Positions 1-5,565 of a DNA stretch of 13,473 nt are shown here, piece by piece. The notes under the pieces are model-generated. The model was not told where the DNA came from. It ran no database searches and saw nothing but the letters and a program-made list of their open reading frames with translations. This DNA comes from Bacteroidetes bacterium UBA4408 (GTDB lineage: Bacteria > Bacteroidota > Bacteroidia > UBA4408): NCBI GenBank assembly GCA_002389785.1, contig DGQS01000162.1:1-13473 (forward strand). Direction: 5' to 3'. The position numbers and the translations under genes were made by a program. Numbering within the stretch: position 1 is the first letter of the stretch; every line of letters begins with the position of its first letter.

Positions 1-1401
1 ATTGGGATATACATAAAAGTCACCATCACTTAAATTCTTTGTTATTCCAGTTCCAAAATTACAGGAAGTAGAATTTCCAAGCAGGTTATTCATTTCTGTA
101 CACAAGTATAAATAATTTGTACTATCAATAAAATTCAGGGCACTACCCAACAAATTAGTTAATTCGTCAGGATCATTTTGTAAATGATAAAATTCTTCAC
201 CCCCGGCATCAAAACGAATAAGCTTATGACTTTTATTTCGAATGGCTTTTGCATCATCGGCATCAGGAGTGTTTTTAAACATCTCACAAAAAGACCATGG
301 TCGAATACTATCGACTTGGTTTTTAAGTATCGGCAACATGCTTTTACTATCCACCGGCTTATTTACAGGAATTGTATTTTTCCAAGTAGTGTCGCCCATT
401 AGTTCAATAACAGTGGCAAAAATATCATGGGTGTTAACCAATGCATCGCTTGCCCTTCCCGGATTACTTACCGAGGGTCCTGCTATAATTAATGGAACAT
501 GCACTCCATATTGATATACTGTACCTTTTGCTCTGTTTAAGTTGGCAATTTGTGCGGTGGCTGTTGCATTTCCATTATCACCTACAAAAATAAAGTCTGT
601 ACTATCCAGTTTATTCAATACTTGCAAAGAGTCAAATAAACGGCCTATTTCTGTATCGAGTGCCTGCAAAGCTGCTTTAAAATACAACTTAGGATTTTGT
701 TGAATGTGCTGTGCTGTACCGCTAAGTGTGGTATAGCTGTGCAAATTTAAGGGTGGTAAATGAAAAGGCGAATGAGGAGCATTAAAGGCCAACCATAAAA
801 AAAATGGATGATTTACCGGAATGGTTTTTAACCAACTCACAGCATTGTTAACATTCTCACTGGTTGCATAATTTGTGACAGTTGTAGGGGTGCCATTTAC
901 ATATTTGGTCCAATTGGTATAACTTGGAAGTGCACCTATAAATGGTCCTTCAAAGTGTGCATAACCCAGCACATTGGGAAATAGTAAATTACCCACCGGA
1001 TTAGGATTGTGTAAATGCCATTTTCCTATGTTAGCTGAAACTATGTTCGAATTAAAATTTGTGAGTAATCGCGGTAGAGTTAATTCAGCAGTATCAAGGG
1101 TTCCTGAACCTGCAGTGCTTCCAACAATATTCCCAACACCTGTTCTAAAGCTATAGCGTCCGGTAAGTATTCCTGCACGTGTAGAAGAGCAAACAGGATT
1201 CGACATTGCGTTTTTAAAGCGAACTCCTTTCGCCAGCATGGCCCTTAAGTTAGGAAGATCAACGGTATCTCCTGCATCTTCGTAAAAACCAAAATAATCG
1301 GTACCTATATCATCGGCAATAATTAAGACTGCGTTGCGTTGCGCAAAAATTACCGATGAATAAATAAAACTAACGATAAGTAAAATAAAATGCTTTCTCA
1401 T
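1..1401 (-). CDS. Secreted sulfatase (arylsulfatase family) with start of a T9SS sorting tail, 3' end cut by window edge
   Basis: This reading frame is open for 467 codons from ATG at 1401 to base 1 and continues past the edge. It begins with a signal peptide (about residues 1-20, ending VIFA). The sulfatase fold is clear: metal-binding Asp30-Asp31 near the N-terminus, the modification site Cys71 in CSSTRAGILTGR, Lys127 and His129 in GKWHLH, His210 in NAPHSP, Asp275-Asn276 in GDNGN, and Lys292 before a YGVHVPLI stretch. Family members hydrolyse sulfate esters, often of polysaccharides, using a formylglycine made from the motif Cys. The usual CxPxR motif has Ser in place of Pro here. The visible end, DGDFYVYPN, matches the beginning of a type A T9SS C-terminal sorting domain, so the enzyme is probably exported across the outer membrane. 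Substrate cannot be told. It is divergent from the repeat-protein gene at 1578. Confidence 0.9.
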   Translation of the reverse strand, partial: MRKHFILLIVSFIYSSVIFAQRNAVLIIADDIGTDYFGFYEDAGDTVDLPNLRAMLAKGVRFKNAMSNPVCSSTRAGILTGRYSFRTGVGNIVGSTAGSGTLDTAELTLPRLLTNFNSNIVSANIGKWHLHNPNPVGNLLFPNVLGYAHFEGPFIGALPSYTNWTKYVNGTPTTVTNYATSENVNNAVSWLKTIPVNHPFFLWLAFNAPHSPFHLPPLNLHSYTTLSGTAQHIQQNPKLYFKAALQALDTEIGRLFDSLQVLNKLDSTDFIFVGDNGNATATAQIANLNRAKGTVYQYGVHVPLIIAGPSVSNPGRASDALVNTHDIFATVIELMGDTTWKNTIPVNKPVDSKSMLPILKNQVDSIRPWSFCEMFKNTPDADDAKAIRNKSHKLIRFDAGGEEFYHLQNDPDELTNLLGSALNFIDSTNYLYLCTEMNNLLGNSTSCNFGTGITKNLSDGDFYVYPN

Positions 1402-1577
1402 TTCCTTCAATTAAAATTAATTTCCCCCTCCACTTGTTTAACTAAGACGACTAAGTTGACTCATTCCTTCGCAACTGGTTTAATTTAAATTTAACGCAAC
1501 TTTCAAAGCAATTAGCTCAAATCGTAACTTTTAAAATTTACCAACGTATAAGCCGAAAGAAATACACATTTTAAAAT
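1402..1577. promoter_or_regulatory. Divergent intergenic region between sulfatase and repeat protein, with a weak plus-strand promoter candidate
   Basis: This AT-rich spacer must drive both flanking genes. The best plus-strand match to a Bacteroidota promoter is TTTC (1500-1503), 21 bases, then TAACTTTT (1525-1532); each box is one base off the TTTG / TAnnTTTG consensus. It would give a leader of roughly 40 bases before 1578. On the minus strand no match with correct spacing was found. No Shine-Dalgarno is evident at 1578; a purine run (GAAGGA) sits too close to the ATG at 1401 to be a standard site. Confidence 0.25.
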
Positions 1578-2357
1578 ATGAATCACATTAAGTTTACTGC
1601 GCTAACTAAAATTATAGTCGGAATAAGCAGTATCCTACTTCAGGTTCAGCCTTTGTTTGCCATTGGCGTTTTTCCCGATGAAACTCTTTTCAAAAGCAGT
1701 GAGCCGTTTCCTACTGGTAAAATAAAATTCAGAGAAGATTGGGTGTATCATTACACGAATGGAAAAGCTGGAATTCGTCAAAAATCGGGATATGAACGTT
1801 ACGATGATTTTGGACTAAAAGTGGAAGAAGCTAAATTTAATAGTGATGGAAAGGCTGTTCTGGAAGCCACCTATACGTACGATGAATATGCAAGGGAAAT
1901 TCAGGCGATTGGAACAGAAAACAATGTTTCATTCTTTAAAAAATGGACCTATAACTTTGACGATAACAAAAAAATATTAACCAAAACGCTCTTTAATAAT
2001 TCAGTTAATCATGAAATGTGGATTTATAAATTTGATAGTGCAGGCAATATTTGTGAAAAAGTAAACTTTAATAAAGACGGTGAGCTCAACTTTAAATATG
2101 CAATTTCTTATACCGATTTTAATAAAACAAAGGAATTAATTGAATATGACACGAATGGAAAACCATATGAAAAGTGGCTGTATATTTATTCCGACAAAAA
2201 GCTAAATACTGAAGTAATACATTATAATTCATCAAATGAAGTGCTCCATAGGTACATCAATAAATATGATGAAAATGGTTTACTACAAGAAGTTCAAACA
2301 TATGATGGTGAAAACAAATTAATAGAGAAAACCCTATCAATTTATCAGTATTACTAA
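1578..2357 (+). CDS. Secreted protein of about seven degenerate ~26-residue YD-like repeats, function unknown
   Basis: The 259-residue product starts with a signal peptide (about residues 1-29, ending PLFA). After a linker (30-70) the rest, residues 71-251, is a series of about seven units of 25-27 residues. Each runs roughly aromatic-x-Y-x-(Y/F)-D-x-x-(G/N), then a charged strand with E, then (Y/F)-(N/D)-x-(D/N)-G. Examples are YERYDDFG at 72-79, WIYKFDSAGN at 148-157 and YINKYDENG at 226-234. This resembles the degenerate RHS/YD or beta-hairpin repeats of many Bacteroidota cell-surface proteins, so a beta-rich envelope or exported protein is likely. No catalytic motif, lipobox or T9SS tail is visible. 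I do not recognise a specific family and assign no function. The gene stands alone, divergent from the sulfatase and convergent with the di-heme enzyme gene. Confidence 0.8.
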   Translation: MNHIKFTALTKIIVGISSILLQVQPLFAIGVFPDETLFKSSEPFPTGKIKFREDWVYHYTNGKAGIRQKSGYERYDDFGLKVEEAKFNSDGKAVLEATYTYDEYAREIQAIGTENNVSFFKKWTYNFDDNKKILTKTLFNNSVNHEMWIYKFDSAGNICEKVNFNKDGELNFKYAISYTDFNKTKELIEYDTNGKPYEKWLYIYSDKKLNTEVIHYNSSNEVLHRYINKYDENGLLQEVQTYDGENKLIEKTLSIYQYY

Positions 2358-2466: not shown

Positions 2467-3495
2467 TTATTTATCATACAAAAGTTCCTTCGGATAAGCA
2501 TTTGATGGATTAAAGATGAATTTCTTATCCGAAAGACAAAGTAGAAAGGCAGTAATATCAACACGTTCATTTGGACTAAGTGGAATTCCATTTTTTAATT
2601 GAGCAGCAAGTGTTGAACTTTTTGTAATTCCAGTTACGTAATGCAGCAACACTTGAGGTAAATTTTTAAATCTTCCGTCGTGCATATAAGGATAAGTGTA
2701 TTCAATATTTCGCAAGGTAGGTACTTTAAATTTCAATGAATCGTTACCATCATGCGTCACCTTCATCCTGCCTAGGTCTTTTAACATTGTATCCAAAGGC
2801 AATCCATTATTTTGAAACGAATAATTCGTAAACAAGGGTTCGGTGTGACAGGACGAACAATGCAATTTAAATAATCGATAGCCATTTTTTTCTTGAGCTG
2901 TAAATTCTGCTGAATGCCGCATAACACTGTCGTATTTGCTTTCTGCGCTAACCAAACTGAGCATAAATTGCGAAATACATTTTAGTACCCGTTCGCCGGT
3001 AATTGTGCTGTCGTTGTATGCAGTATAAAATAGCTTGGGAAAGGGTTTATGAATTTGTAATTTTTGAATAACACGTTGTATATTTTCATCCATTTCGAGG
3101 GGATGAGTAATAGGAAATAAGGCTTGCATATCGAGGTGATTGATAGCACCATCCCACATGAAACTATTACTCCAGGCTAAGTTTACTAAGGCGGGAGCGT
3201 TTCGGTTGCCAATTTTATCGTCAATACCATGACTTAATGCATGATCTGTATGTGCGAAGGAAGCGTAGGGTGAGTGACAAGAAGCACAGGATATTTTATT
3301 AGTTCGTGAAAGTAAACCACTGTAAAAAAGCAAACGACCGAGTTTAATTTTTGAACTATCTAAGGGATTTCTTTCGAATGCATACTTTGGTTGTGGCCAA
3401 TTAACCGGAACTTTAAATAGTTCGTCAAACTTAGGTACAAAGGATCCTAAGATACAGGCGATGCTTAGGAAAGAAATAATTTTAACATACCTCAT
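2467..3495 (-). CDS. MauG/MbnH-type di-heme cytochrome c enzyme (cytochrome c peroxidase superfamily)
   Basis: The 342-residue protein has an N-terminal hydrophobic export segment (about 4-20) and two heme c sites, CASCH at 70-74 and CSSCH at 213-217, the two-domain layout of bacterial cytochrome c peroxidases and MauG. Other family marks are MWDGA (Trp114, the place of the inter-heme Trp), HPLEM (Glu134) and the stretch VPTLRN at 258-263 followed by PYMHDGRF. In classical peroxidases the high-potential heme is held by a Met downstream of this stretch; here LLHYVTG gives Tyr286 at about that place, as in MauG, which uses a Tyr ligand. That favours a protein-modifying oxidase over a simple peroxide scavenger, but this is inferred. 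It is the last gene of a five-gene operon and overlaps the MbnP-family gene by four bases (ATGA), so the two are probably translated together. The likely substrate is that neighbour. The periplasm is the expected site. Confidence 0.9.
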   Translation of the reverse strand: MRYVKIISFLSIACILGSFVPKFDELFKVPVNWPQPKYAFERNPLDSSKIKLGRLLFYSGLLSRTNKISCASCHSPYASFAHTDHALSHGIDDKIGNRNAPALVNLAWSNSFMWDGAINHLDMQALFPITHPLEMDENIQRVIQKLQIHKPFPKLFYTAYNDSTITGERVLKCISQFMLSLVSAESKYDSVMRHSAEFTAQEKNGYRLFKLHCSSCHTEPLFTNYSFQNNGLPLDTMLKDLGRMKVTHDGNDSLKFKVPTLRNIEYTYPYMHDGRFKNLPQVLLHYVTGITKSSTLAAQLKNGIPLSPNERVDITAFLLCLSDKKFIFNPSNAYPKELLYDK

Positions 3496-4184
3496 TTTAC
3501 TAAGTTAAAGCAACTTTTAGCAGTTGCTGAAAGTTGAATAGCCTCCCTACCGGGAGACATAATGTGAGCATGCTGCTTCACTACTTCAGAAGTAATAAAT
3601 TTTATAACATCAAAATTTAGCTTGATTGAATTCAGCTGTTTAATCTCAAATCGTAGAGTTTGCAAGGCATTTTCATTTTGCTGATATCCACCTAAATGAT
3701 AAACTAATCTTTTTGCTAAAGCATCTTTCGACTTATACAAGCCTTCAAGCTTTAAATTAATATATCCACTTTGCCAGGTCCAATACATTCCTTGAGTAGG
3801 ATCTAAATCGGCGCCAAATGCACCTGAAACTGAAGTAAGACTATCGATACCCAAATTAAAAACTAACTCATCGGCAACTAGTTGATCGGGAATATTGATT
3901 TTTACAAGACAGCTTTGAGGCTTTTCAATATCAATTAAATGAAAACTTTGAATTTCGCTCCATACCGGAATACCTTTGTTAAAAAATTGAATTCCTGATA
4001 TATAAAATTTAAGGAGTTCGATACAAATACTATCGTTTTTTAGGGAGAAGCACTTTTCAGCATGCACTGTTTGTTCGTCGGCTACCGGAAGCACTTCCAA
4101 CGTTAATAAACGATTGGTTTGTGAAAACAAATTGGTGGTATCAATCAATAATTGAACAAGCAAAATAAGTAAACCTCTTTTCAT
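3492..4184 (-). CDS. MbnP-family (copper-binding) exported protein, partner of the di-heme enzyme
   Basis: This 230-residue protein has a signal peptide (about 1-21, ending LFSQ). The family is recognised by FYISGIQ (60-66), LVFNLGID (107-114), MYWTWQSGYINLKLEG (133-148), YHLGG (162-166) and a C-terminal HAHIMS (205-210). In characterised MbnP a tryptophan is oxidised to kynurenine by the adjacent MbnH and the modified protein then binds copper. Here Trp135 and Trp137 are candidate modification sites, and His163, His205, His207 and Met209 are possible ligands; these residue assignments are inferred from position only. The gene starts one base after the stop of the periplasmic sensor gene and overlaps the di-heme enzyme gene by four bases. 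Its place inside a sigma/anti-sigma operon suggests it is made in response to an envelope signal, possibly metal. No methanobactin precursor gene is seen nearby. Confidence 0.85.
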   Translation of the reverse strand: MKRGLLILLVQLLIDTTNLFSQTNRLLTLEVLPVADEQTVHAEKCFSLKNDSICIELLKFYISGIQFFNKGIPVWSEIQSFHLIDIEKPQSCLVKINIPDQLVADELVFNLGIDSLTSVSGAFGADLDPTQGMYWTWQSGYINLKLEGLYKSKDALAKRLVYHLGGYQQNENALQTLRFEIKQLNSIKLNFDVIKFITSEVVKQHAHIMSPGREAIQLSATAKSCFNLVK

Positions 4185-4185
4185 T

Positions 4186-4641
4186 TTACCGCTTTCTTCG
4201 AGGTGGGCGATGAGAAAATAACGAAGCTAATTCAGCTGCCAGACTATCGAAATAAGTTAATTGTGTTGGGTTACACAAATTTTTTACGTCCTTAAAATGC
4301 GCGTAATTCACTTGCTCTATCTGCATTTGCATGACTCCAATTTGTTGAATTATTGAATCTTGAGCAGTGGGTATTGTATCCTTTATTAATTGGAGATACA
4401 ACTTGTTTTTAAGGGCATTTATTTTTGAATCCAGCTCATTTATTTGATGGCGGTGTTGTTCAATAAGTTGGTCAAATTTTTCAATTTGATTAGGTGCAAA
4501 TTGTAATCTTTCAATCATGTAATCGCGTGGGCCATGTTTTCCGGGAGGATGCGGTCGGCCAAAAAACAAGAACGCCATCAACAGAAGATTCACTAGTATC
4601 AACAAAACTACAGATGCTCCGAGTATTTTTATTTTATTCAT
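4186..4641 (-). CDS. CnrX/CpxP-like periplasmic metal-sensor protein, membrane-anchored
   Basis: The 151-residue product has one N-terminal membrane helix (about 7-28), a His-containing linker GRPHPPGKHGPRD (28-40), then long amphipathic helices (41-85 and 95-142) and a basic tail (HRPPRRKR). The helices carry the repeating pattern of the CnrX/Spy/CpxP (heavy-metal resistance) fold, with HRH at 63-65, HF at 115-116 and a final turn before NPTQLTYFD, the place where relatives have TPEQ. In CnrX, His, Met and Glu side chains of such helices bind Ni or Co and pass the signal to a small anti-sigma factor. The candidate ligands here are His31, His36, His63, His65 and His115; the metal is unknown. 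The gene overlaps the anti-sigma gene by eight bases and is followed after one base by the MbnP-family gene. The order sigma, short anti-sigma, sensor is that of the Cnr system shuffled within one operon. Confidence 0.75.
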   Translation of the reverse strand: MNKIKILGASVVLLILVNLLLMAFLFFGRPHPPGKHGPRDYMIERLQFAPNQIEKFDQLIEQHRHQINELDSKINALKNKLYLQLIKDTIPTAQDSIIQQIGVMQMQIEQVNYAHFKDVKNLCNPTQLTYFDSLAAELASLFSHRPPRRKR

Positions 4642-4906
4642 GATAGATCGAGTTTTGCGAAAGAATATGATACTGCTCGGCCAAATTCTCGTTACGATTG
4701 CTTTTCAATGCAGTATAGGTTGTAATTGCATTTAAAAGAAGCAGCACAAAACAAATTGCTCCAATGGCACGCAAGCTTTTGTAGGAATAAGTGGTTGGAT
4801 ACGACTCAGCTATTTTTTGTTTAATGCGTGTAAACAAAAAGGGAGAAGCTTCCACACGATTCAACTGTTCGAGCAGCGTTAAATTCTTATTTTCATTGGT
4901 ATTCAT
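4634..4906 (-). CDS. Short one-helix anti-sigma factor (CnrY-like in layout)
   Basis: This 90-residue protein has a cytoplasmic N-terminal part (1-45), one membrane helix (about 47-67, ICFVLLLLNA) and a short outer tail of about 23 residues. The N-terminal stretch LLEQLNRVEASPFLFTRIKQ (11-30) is the form seen in the sigma-binding segment of small anti-sigma factors, where a helix plus a P-x-L-x-x-R-I element clamps the sigma factor. Length and layout agree with CnrY-type proteins; there is no zinc-binding HxxxCxxC. It directly follows the ECF sigma gene (105-base gap) and overlaps the sensor gene by eight bases (ATGAATAA). The expected role is to hold the sigma factor at the membrane until the sensor changes state. 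Assignment rests on context and shape as much as on sequence. Confidence 0.7.
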   Translation of the reverse strand: MNTNENKNLTLLEQLNRVEASPFLFTRIKQKIAESYPTTYSYKSLRAIGAICFVLLLLNAITTYTALKSNRNENLAEQYHILSQNSIYHE

Positions 4907-4927
4907 AATTCTTGGTTTTATTCAGTA

Positions 4928-4948
4928 GGATGTGGTTAGCATACATCC
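4928..4948 (-). repeat. Inverted repeat GGATGT-N9-ACATCC upstream of the anti-sigma gene
   Basis: GGATGT at 4928-4933 and ACATCC at 4943-4948 form a perfect six-base inverted repeat with a nine-base loop. In the minus-strand transcript it would be a small hairpin ending about 22 bases before the anti-sigma ATG at 4906. It could affect translation of that gene or mark a protein-binding site. Confidence 0.45.
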
Positions 4949-4950
4949 GA

Positions 4951-4991
4951 CAACTAATTTTTCAAAACTTACACTTGCTACAAATTAGTTG
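4951..4991 (-). repeat. Perfect 10-base inverted repeat in the sigma/anti-sigma gap
   Basis: CAACTAATTT at 4951-4960 is the exact reverse complement of AAATTAGTTG at 4982-4991, with a 21-base spacer. It lies between the sigma stop (5012) and the anti-sigma start (4906). No T-run follows on the minus strand, so it is not a typical terminator; a processing, attenuation or operator element is possible. Confidence 0.55.
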
Positions 4992-5011
4992 CTGTAGTTA
5001 TGACGACCTTT

Positions 5012-5539
5012 TTATTCATATCCTTCGTTGCTTTTTAATTTTATTGCCAAATTCGTTTTTGCTCGCTGCAGCAATGACTCAATGGCTTTGTAACTCATAT
5101 TAAGTATTTCGGCAATTTCGTTGATAGATTTCTGTTCAATTTTATTTAATATTAAAACGGTTTTCTGATTGGGTGGCAATTGATCAATAAAATGAAAAAT
5201 ACGCGCAGTTGCTTCCTTATTTTCCAAAATAACTCCGGGATGATCAAAGTCCCGGTGATCGTGTTTGAGTTCGGAACTATCCTCGTAAAATAAAGAAGTG
5301 ATAAAAGCAAAACGTTTTTTTCGTTGCCGTGCCTTAATAAAATCGAGCGATTTATTAATGGTAATTCGATACATCCAAGTTGTAAATTTTGACTCGGCTT
5401 TAAAAGTATGCATTGAAAAATGTATGGATACAAATACGTCTTGCGTGATTTCCTCTGCATCTTGTACATTGTGCACATAACTTAATGCCAGGTTAAAAAC
5501 CAAATTTTTATGCGTGTTGTATAATTCTTCGAGATTCAA
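5012..5539 (-). CDS. ECF-family RNA polymerase sigma factor, TTG start
   Basis: The 175-residue protein has sigma region 2 at about residues 8-75 (LVFNLALSYVHNVQDAEEIT, then DVF, then FTTWMYRITINKSLDFIKAR) and sigma region 4 at about 112-165 (LPPNQKTVLILNKIEQKSIN, EIAEILNMSYKAIESLLQRA). Region 3 is absent, as in all ECF factors. The only start codon that keeps the full region 2 is TTG at 5537-5539: an in-frame stop lies at 5552-5554 with no ATG or GTG between, and the first internal Met is residue 43, inside region 2. It heads the operon with a short anti-sigma factor, a CnrX-like sensor, an MbnP-family protein and a di-heme enzyme, and probably directs transcription of these genes once released from the anti-sigma factor. 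It is divergent from the M1 aminopeptidase gene. Confidence 0.92.
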   Translation of the reverse strand: MNLEELYNTHKNLVFNLALSYVHNVQDAEEITQDVFVSIHFSMHTFKAESKFTTWMYRITINKSLDFIKARQRKKRFAFITSLFYEDSSELKHDHRDFDHPGVILENKEATARIFHFIDQLPPNQKTVLILNKIEQKSINEIAEILNMSYKAIESLLQRAKTNLAIKLKSNEGYE

Positions 5540-5557
5540 GGAAAGTACTTGTTAGGG

Positions 5558-5565
5558 CAAATCTA
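5558..5565 (-). promoter_or_regulatory. Candidate -7 box TAGATTTG for the sigma-factor operon
   Basis: On the minus strand 5565-5558 reads TAGATTTG, a perfect TAnnTTTG match. Transcription would begin near 5551-5554, just before the TTG start at 5539 and about at the in-frame stop, which agrees with that start. No clear TTTG -33 box stands at the right distance (the nearest, at 5600-5603, is too far), so an activator or another sigma factor may be involved. Confidence 0.4.

What the first reader, a model, noticed from the sequence alone, without database searches (positions are those of the whole stretch)
2467..5565. MbnP/MbnH pair under a Cnr-like sigma/anti-sigma/periplasmic-sensor module
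Seen: five minus-strand genes with overlaps or gaps of -8, +1 and -4 bases after a 105-base first gap: ECF sigma, one-helix anti-sigma, CnrX/CpxP-like sensor, MbnP-family protein, MauG/MbnH-type di-heme enzyme. Known: CnrX/CnrY/CnrH sense Ni/Co, and MbnH modifies MbnP to make a copper site in methanobactin operons. Inferred: a self-regulated envelope metal or redox response in which the sensor and the post-translationally built metalloprotein belong to one circuit, without methanobactin.
Basis: partly seen in the sequence, partly recalled or inferred. Interest (0 to 1): 0.75.

Follow-up and report, generated by a model that had tools for sequence, protein, structure and literature searches.

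The report
Sigma-controlled copper-protein operon in Bacteroidota
Five neighbouring genes form a recurring operon in which an envelope sensor module probably switches on a copper-binding protein and the enzyme that matures it; the parts are known families, but I found no description of this combination.

The parts
5012..5539 (-). ECF sigma factor (175 aa, TTG start)
   Evidence: Pfam Sigma70_r2 9e-16 and r4_2 1.1e-13; blastp to CnrH 27% identity, E 3e-17 for that single comparison
4634..4906 (-). One-helix anti-sigma factor (90 aa); role inferred from position and size
   Evidence: No family above cut-off; both a sigma and an anti-sigma hit upstream of the sensor on the same strand in 74 of 83 sensor loci; no significant similarity to CnrY
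4637..4654 (-). C-terminal NSIYHE tail of the anti-sigma, proposed docking peptide (inference)
   Evidence: Tyr88 invariant in 26 aligned sequences; of 105 distinct anti-sigma hits 47 end in N-x-[LIF]-Y plus 0-4 residues and 68 in [LIFVM]-Y plus 0-4; 25 of 40 MbnPH loci have the stricter form
4186..4641 (-). CnrX-fold membrane-anchored periplasmic sensor (151 aa)
4453..4455 (-). Sensor His63 codon, candidate ligand
   Evidence: His in 103 of 107 distinct sensors
4297..4299 (-). Sensor His115 codon, aligned with CnrX His119
   Evidence: hhalign; His in 101 of 107
4273..4275 (-). Sensor Cys123 codon, candidate ligand or redox residue
   Evidence: Cys in 90 of 107
3492..4184 (-). MbnP (230 aa)
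3774..3782 (-). WxW motif of MbnP (W135-T-W137); the first Trp is the expected kynurenine precursor
   Evidence: both Trp in 124 of 124 distinct relatives; kynurenine role recalled from Manesis 2021, not read
2467..3495 (-). MbnH/MauG-type di-heme enzyme (342 aa)
   Evidence: CCP_MauG 1e-47, TIGR04039 5.3e-58 under cut-off; CASCH at 70 and CSSCH at 213; of the residues counted, Cys73, Cys213, Cys216, His217 and Tyr286 are each 115 of 115
1..1410 (-). Sulfatase cut by the contig end; probable distal member of the locus (inference)
   Evidence: PF00884 6.4e-38; homologue next after mbnH in L105 and L192 and two genes after it in L138 and L140; its C terminus and a YHYH gene probably continue on contig C144

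Best explanation
A self-contained envelope metal-response operon. At rest the membrane anti-sigma holds the ECF sigma factor; its short periplasmic tail is read by the CnrX-fold sensor. A metal signal, most likely copper, changes the sensor, sigma is released and transcribes its targets. The co-transcribed targets are MbnP and MbnH: MbnH oxidises the first Trp of the WxW motif of MbnP to kynurenine and so builds a copper(I) site. In most related loci a YHYH protein follows (with a T9SS secretion tail where scanned), sometimes with a sulfatase or multicopper oxidase. I saw no metal efflux pump among the neighbours that I scanned, though I did not search for one systematically, so I favour copper acquisition or delivery to secreted copper proteins, without methanobactin. 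Shown: gene content, recurring order, folds of sensor and MbnP models, conserved residues. Inferred: sigma release, copper as signal, kynurenine formation here, docking by the tail, direction of response.
For: Order: 14 of 30 MbnP loci of the first set (window included) and 29 of 80 named MbnP loci have the sensor adjacent to MbnP. 40 of 83 sensor loci have MbnP downstream within 6.5 kb, 26 of the 69 not used to build the profile (L148 moved by hand). On one quick sigma+sensor tree the label is clustered (11 changes, shuffled mean 27.4, 0 of 500 as low) and at least 7 changes are forced by well-supported branches, so the link was gained or lost repeatedly. Other outputs of the module point to copper: SCO1 in place of MbnPH in 9 of 83 loci, a T9SS multicopper oxidase directly after the sensor in L173, and multicopper oxidases in 20 of 182 loci scanned. 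CnrX is the best fold match; MbnP fold and WxW are kept. Passages seen place MbnPH-like genes in copper operons (PMC9426467) and call CorA, an analogous kynurenine copper protein, copper-repressible (PMC3912023).
Against: No believable promoter motif. By alignment the sensor keeps only one of five CnrX ligands; whether His63, His115 and Cys123 lie close together was not measured. 24 of 83 sensor loci have none of the recognised outputs and some have unrelated ones: a PqqD, ATP-grasp, decarboxylase and urea-transporter set in L125 and, by sequence clustering, L128; a sodium/proton exchanger in L184. So the sensor family is not copper-specific by genomics. His63, His115 and Cys123 are shared by most of the family whatever its output. 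The sensor was not found in seven other genomes of the window's family, six of which have an MbnP-family gene. The strict anti-sigma tail motif is in 47 of 105 only.
Confidence: 0.6

Rival explanations
1. Same circuit, different signal: the sensor detects another metal (Zn, Ni, Co) or a redox state through Cys123 and the His residues, and MbnPH is a peroxide or oxidant handling output.
For: CnrX itself answers Ni/Co (PMC7689651 passages); Cys123 in 90 of 107 sensors; lone MauG-like di-heme genes follow the sensor in 5 of 83 loci.
Against: Alternative outputs include SCO1 and multicopper oxidase; MbnP WxW invariant.
Confidence: 0.22
2. Envelope-stress rather than metal control: the sensor is a Spy/CpxP-like chaperone domain that senses misfolded or crowded secreted proteins (T9SS cargo) and tunes their expression.
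Against: CnrX ranks first by both aligners; sigma and anti-sigma partners as in Cnr; His63 and His115 conserved, which a chaperone would not obviously need.
Confidence: 0.13
3. MbnH's real substrate is the YHYH protein as well as, or instead of, MbnP, and the locus makes a modified secreted protein.
For: YHYH near MbnP in 60 of 80 named loci and 23 of 30 of the first set, also in loci lacking the module.
Against: YHYH proteins also follow the module without MbnH (10 short-YHYH and 4 YHYH-only of 83); MbnP is next to MbnH in 79 of 80 and 29 of 30 loci.
Confidence: 0.08

Closest known systems
CnrYXH of Cupriavidus metallidurans (pMOL28)
   Same: ECF sigma, small membrane anti-sigma, membrane-anchored sensor with the same helical fold; His115 aligns with CnrX His119
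   Different: Gene order sigma-anti-sensor instead of Y-X-H; H42, H46, E63 and M123 not kept in the alignment; anti-sigma not recognisably similar to CnrY; MbnPH follows instead of RND efflux genes
MbnP/MbnH pair of methanobactin operons (Methylosinus trichosporium)
   Different: No MbnB-family gene found in the own genome; both proteins below the NCBIfam cut-offs; the sigma module differs from the FecIR-type MbnI/MbnR of PMC3621798 (passages)
MopE/CorA with SACCP/CorB of methanotrophs
   Same: Kynurenine-containing copper(I) protein with a co-transcribed di-heme partner; copper-repressed (PMC3912023 abstract and passages)
   Different: [quoted passage not shown] the passages seen mention no CnrX-like module

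Membership tests
CnrYXH system | Membrane-anchored periplasmic sensor with the CnrX fold | tested here: met
   [not shown]
CnrYXH system | CnrX metal ligands H42, H46, E63, H119, M123 | tested here: not met
   Only the H119 equivalent (His115) is kept in the hhalign alignment (P 0.0014, probability 17%); ligand list partly recalled
CnrYXH system | Class II anti-sigma related to CnrY | tested here: inconclusive
   hhalign P 0.13, no significant alignment; topology alike by reading the sequence
CnrYXH system | Order Y-X-H followed by RND efflux genes | tested here: not met
   Order is sigma-anti-sensor, followed by MbnPH
CnrYXH system | Ni/Co response | not testable with these tools
   needs expression data
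MbnP (PF20243) | Pfam score above cut-off and MbnP fold | tested here: met
   [not shown]
MbnP (PF20243) | WxW motif | tested here: met
   both Trp in 124 of 124
MbnP NCBIfam equivalog TIGR04052 | Score above equivalog cut-off | tested here: not met
   33 bits against 140
MbnP (PF20243) | Kynurenine formation and Cu(I) binding | not testable with these tools
   needs protein chemistry
MauG/MbnH di-heme enzymes | Two CxxCH hemes and MauG-type Tyr | tested here: met
   CASCH and CSSCH; Tyr286 aligns with a Tyr of 6e1c; the ligand role of that Tyr is recalled
MbnH NCBIfam TIGR04039 | Score above cut-off | tested here: not met
   196.7 bits against 362.85
Methanobactin operon | MbnB family gene | tested here: not met
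   0 matches to PF05114 in the own genome, which is 71% complete; 4 of 15 module genomes have a match somewhere
FecIR/MbnIR regulation | FecR-domain anti-sigma with TonB receptor | tested here: not met
   No FecR hit in the anti-sigma; no receptor among the nine window proteins scanned with Pfam

The most novel reading that the evidence does not exclude
A Bacteroidota-wide class of ECF switches in which a CnrX-fold sensor with a new His63/His115/Cys123 metal site reads a short C-terminal peptide of a minimal anti-sigma (N-x-[LIF]-Y in the window's kind), and which controls a surface copper system (MbnPH kynurenine copper protein, YHYH protein, SCO1, multicopper oxidase) that does without methanobactin.
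Probability: 0.3. Interest if true: 0.75.

Novelty: new variant of a known kind. Interest (0 to 1): 0.6.

Why it matters
MbnPH pairs occur far beyond methanobactin producers and their role there was called unclear (PMC3621798 passage of 2013). Here they come with a dedicated switch, so their signal becomes testable by simple induction. One study found only 6% of Bacteroidetes ECFs beside a class I anti-sigma and suggested that other anti-sigma classes may dominate there (PMC7406223 passage); this short anti-sigma family is a concrete candidate. The locus also links YHYH proteins, a Pfam family for which I found no functional paper, to copper chemistry.

Tried and rejected
Promoter and autoregulation. 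Dyad and k-mer counts on 89 non-redundant upstream regions: the top counts exceed the shuffles, but they are A/T runs or, as I judge, the coding start. A two-block motif search scored 71.5 against 33.6, 38.4 and 34.1 in three shuffles; I did not believe the motif, because it looked like coding or composition signal in mixed-GC genomes, so this is inconclusive. Alignments of upstream regions of close relatives showed nothing that I could call a promoter. The consensus scan found 8 promoter-like sites against 12.4 expected and 0 terminator-like sites against 2.8.

The sensor search by sequence words found 4 and then 17 proteins. MbnP had no sequence match in the PDB; the fold search solved this. 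YHYH profile hits of 20-40 bits were not counted; where checked (L138, L140) they are multicopper oxidases with T9SS tails. The ECF sigma is not specially close to CnrH: six other PDB sequences score higher. The MauG-like gene beside PhoX that is induced in Flavobacterium under phosphate depletion (PMC8115612 passages) suggested phosphate; nothing else seen at the locus supports it. PMC9601215 (passages) speculates that mbnPH assists methanobactin maturation or copper release.

Counts mended. The script put L148 under di-heme only because its MbnP overlaps the sensor by more than the script allowed; I moved it by hand (40, not 39). Two of 83 loci (L146, L166), without a sigma hit that met the rule, were dropped from the tree. 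22 of 105 sensor matches were not fetched as neighbourhoods; three of them (G219, G371, G300) have an MbnP match beside them by coordinates. My note says 181 loci; the right number is 182.
Full report
WHAT IS THERE. The window (contig C234 of a 71%-complete genome of 2.65 Mb) encodes on the minus strand an ECF sigma factor (5012-5539), a 90-aa one-helix protein (4634-4906), a 151-aa membrane-anchored protein (4186-4641), an MbnP-family protein (3492-4184) and a di-heme enzyme (2467-3495). The reported spacings are exact. The sigma frame starts at TTG 5539; an in-frame TAA at 5552-5554 rules out the stated 5565 (read). MbnP and the di-heme enzyme are far above Pfam cut-offs, but fall below the NCBIfam cut-offs of TIGR04052 and TIGR04039, so they are divergent members.

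SYNTENY. In 149 genomes (most of the same class), 13 of 30 non-self matches to the sensor, among them the seven best, lie next to a relative of MbnP. Of 30 MbnP loci (window plus L093-L121), 14 have sensor, anti-sigma, sigma and MbnH together; these 14 genomes carry 12 family codes. In the named collection a scan with an MbnP alignment built from module-linked copies confirmed 539 relatives and kept the best 80; 79 have MbnH, 60 a YHYH gene, 33 the sensor, 29 the sensor directly adjacent. By their record titles, module-bearing records include Saprospiraceae, Chitinophagaceae, Crocinitomicaceae, Ignavibacteria and Candidatus Kapaibacterium. The two sets overlap: 12 MbnP proteins are identical in both.

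To avoid selecting on MbnP, a sensor profile (A1, 14 module-linked sensors) was run on 395 genomes of the same class: 96 had a match, 105 matches in all. I fetched the neighbourhoods of 83. With L148 moved by hand, 40 have MbnP downstream on the same strand within 6.5 kb; 10 a short YHYH gene (9 with SCO1); 5 a lone MauG-like gene; 4 a YHYH gene only; 24 none of these. Leaving out the 14 training loci, 26 of 69 have MbnP. MbnP lies within 150 bases of the sensor in 31 of the 40 (30 by the script plus L148). Among the 24, L160 and L174 end at the contig edge right after the sensor, and L158, L166 and L187 have under 2.5 kb downstream. The profile was built from linked sensors, so its ranking favours them. 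Results against the reading: the sensor was not found in seven other genomes of the window's family, though six have an MbnP-family gene, and about half of the nearest MbnP loci have no module.

TREE. One quick tree of concatenated sensor and sigma sequences (81 of 83 loci) places the window in a group of 43 (SH-aLRT 96) with 34 MbnPH loci. The MbnPH label needs 11 changes, against a mean of 27.4 in shuffles (0 of 500 as low), and branches with support of 95 or more force at least 7. So switch and MbnPH are tied, yet have been linked or unlinked several times, including exchange with YHYH/SCO1.

THE LARGER UNIT. A YHYH protein (PF14240) lies near MbnP in 60 of 80 and 23 of 30 loci, with or without the sigma module. 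The three full-length YHYH proteins that I scanned (L097, L122, L134) all carry a T9SS sorting domain. In L138 and L140 the order is sigma, anti-sigma, sensor, mbnP, mbnH, multicopper oxidase, sulfatase, YHYH; both oxidases and the L138 sulfatase have a T9SS tail, the L140 sulfatase was not scanned but ends almost identically. In L192 the order is mbnH, sulfatase, YHYH; its sulfatase gave no T9SS hit. Multicopper oxidases occur in 20 of 182 loci scanned, 17 distinct proteins. In the window the sulfatase (1-1410, minus strand) is cut at the contig edge apparently where a T9SS tail begins; a 259-aa gene on the other strand lies between it and mbnH. Contig C144 of the same genome begins with the end of what reads as a T9SS tail, followed by a YHYH gene. 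I infer, without having joined them, that C144 continues C234.

COPPER AND DIRECTION. Copper is favoured by MbnP itself, by SCO1 in place of MbnPH and by multicopper oxidases, and by MbnPH-like genes in copper operons of other bacteria (PMC9426467 passage). Starvation is favoured, weakly, by the copper repression of CorA and MopE (PMC3912023 passages) and by seeing no metal efflux pump among the neighbours scanned (not a systematic search). CnrX works the other way: metal binding releases sigma (PMC7689651 passages). Direction is open. Sensor relatives with unrelated outputs (PqqD, ATP-grasp and urea transporter; sodium/proton exchanger) show that the sensor family is not tied to copper alone.

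WHAT IS KNOWN. PMC3621798 (passages) describes MbnPH as a pair conserved far beyond methanobactin producers and, in Methylosinus, isolated pairs near TonB receptors with FecIR-type MbnI/MbnR. ECF control beside MbnPH is thus not new; a CnrX-type module beside it I have not seen described. Searches for MbnP with MbnH, MbnPH, CnrX with ECF and Bacteroidetes, CnrY/CnrX/CnrH, MauG with sigma factor, periplasmic heavy metal sensor, and YHYH gave no listing or passage that describes this operon; the library holds open-licence papers only, and I read listings and passages, no paper in full.

VERDICT. Observation confirmed, interpretation partly supported. A new variant of a known kind: it works like CnrYXH but fails the membership test on ligands, order and output.

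Noticed in passing
window 1-1410 (-) and contig C144 (L134:1-1587): Sulfatase cut at the contig edge where a T9SS tail seems to begin; C144 begins with the end of what reads as a T9SS tail followed by a YHYH gene, so the two contigs are probably neighbours.
   Followed up: partly
window 1578-2357 (+): A 259-aa protein without a Pfam hit under E 0.3 sits on the opposite strand between mbnH and the sulfatase; it was not searched for in relatives.
   Followed up: no
L125 and L128: The same sigma/anti-sigma/sensor module precedes a PqqD, ATP-grasp, PLP-decarboxylase and urea-transporter/M23 gene set (L125 annotated, L128 by clustering), an unrelated-looking output.
   Followed up: partly
L122, L124, L126, L149, L159, L161, L163, L170, L179: Module followed by a short YHYH protein, a MORN-repeat-like protein and SCO1, as an alternative output to MbnPH.
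   Followed up: partly
L131 (G000:C105): Second, divergent MbnP/MbnH pair in the same genome, preceded by a Phenol_MetA_deg-like protein; no sigma module on this 5.6-kb contig.
   Followed up: partly
L129, L186, L188, L193, L194: A lone MauG-like di-heme gene directly follows the sensor, without MbnP.
   Followed up: no
L275:16905-17027 (pMOL28): A 40-aa protein annotated 'YHYH domain-containing' lies beside cnrY; probably a different short family sharing the name.
   Followed up: no
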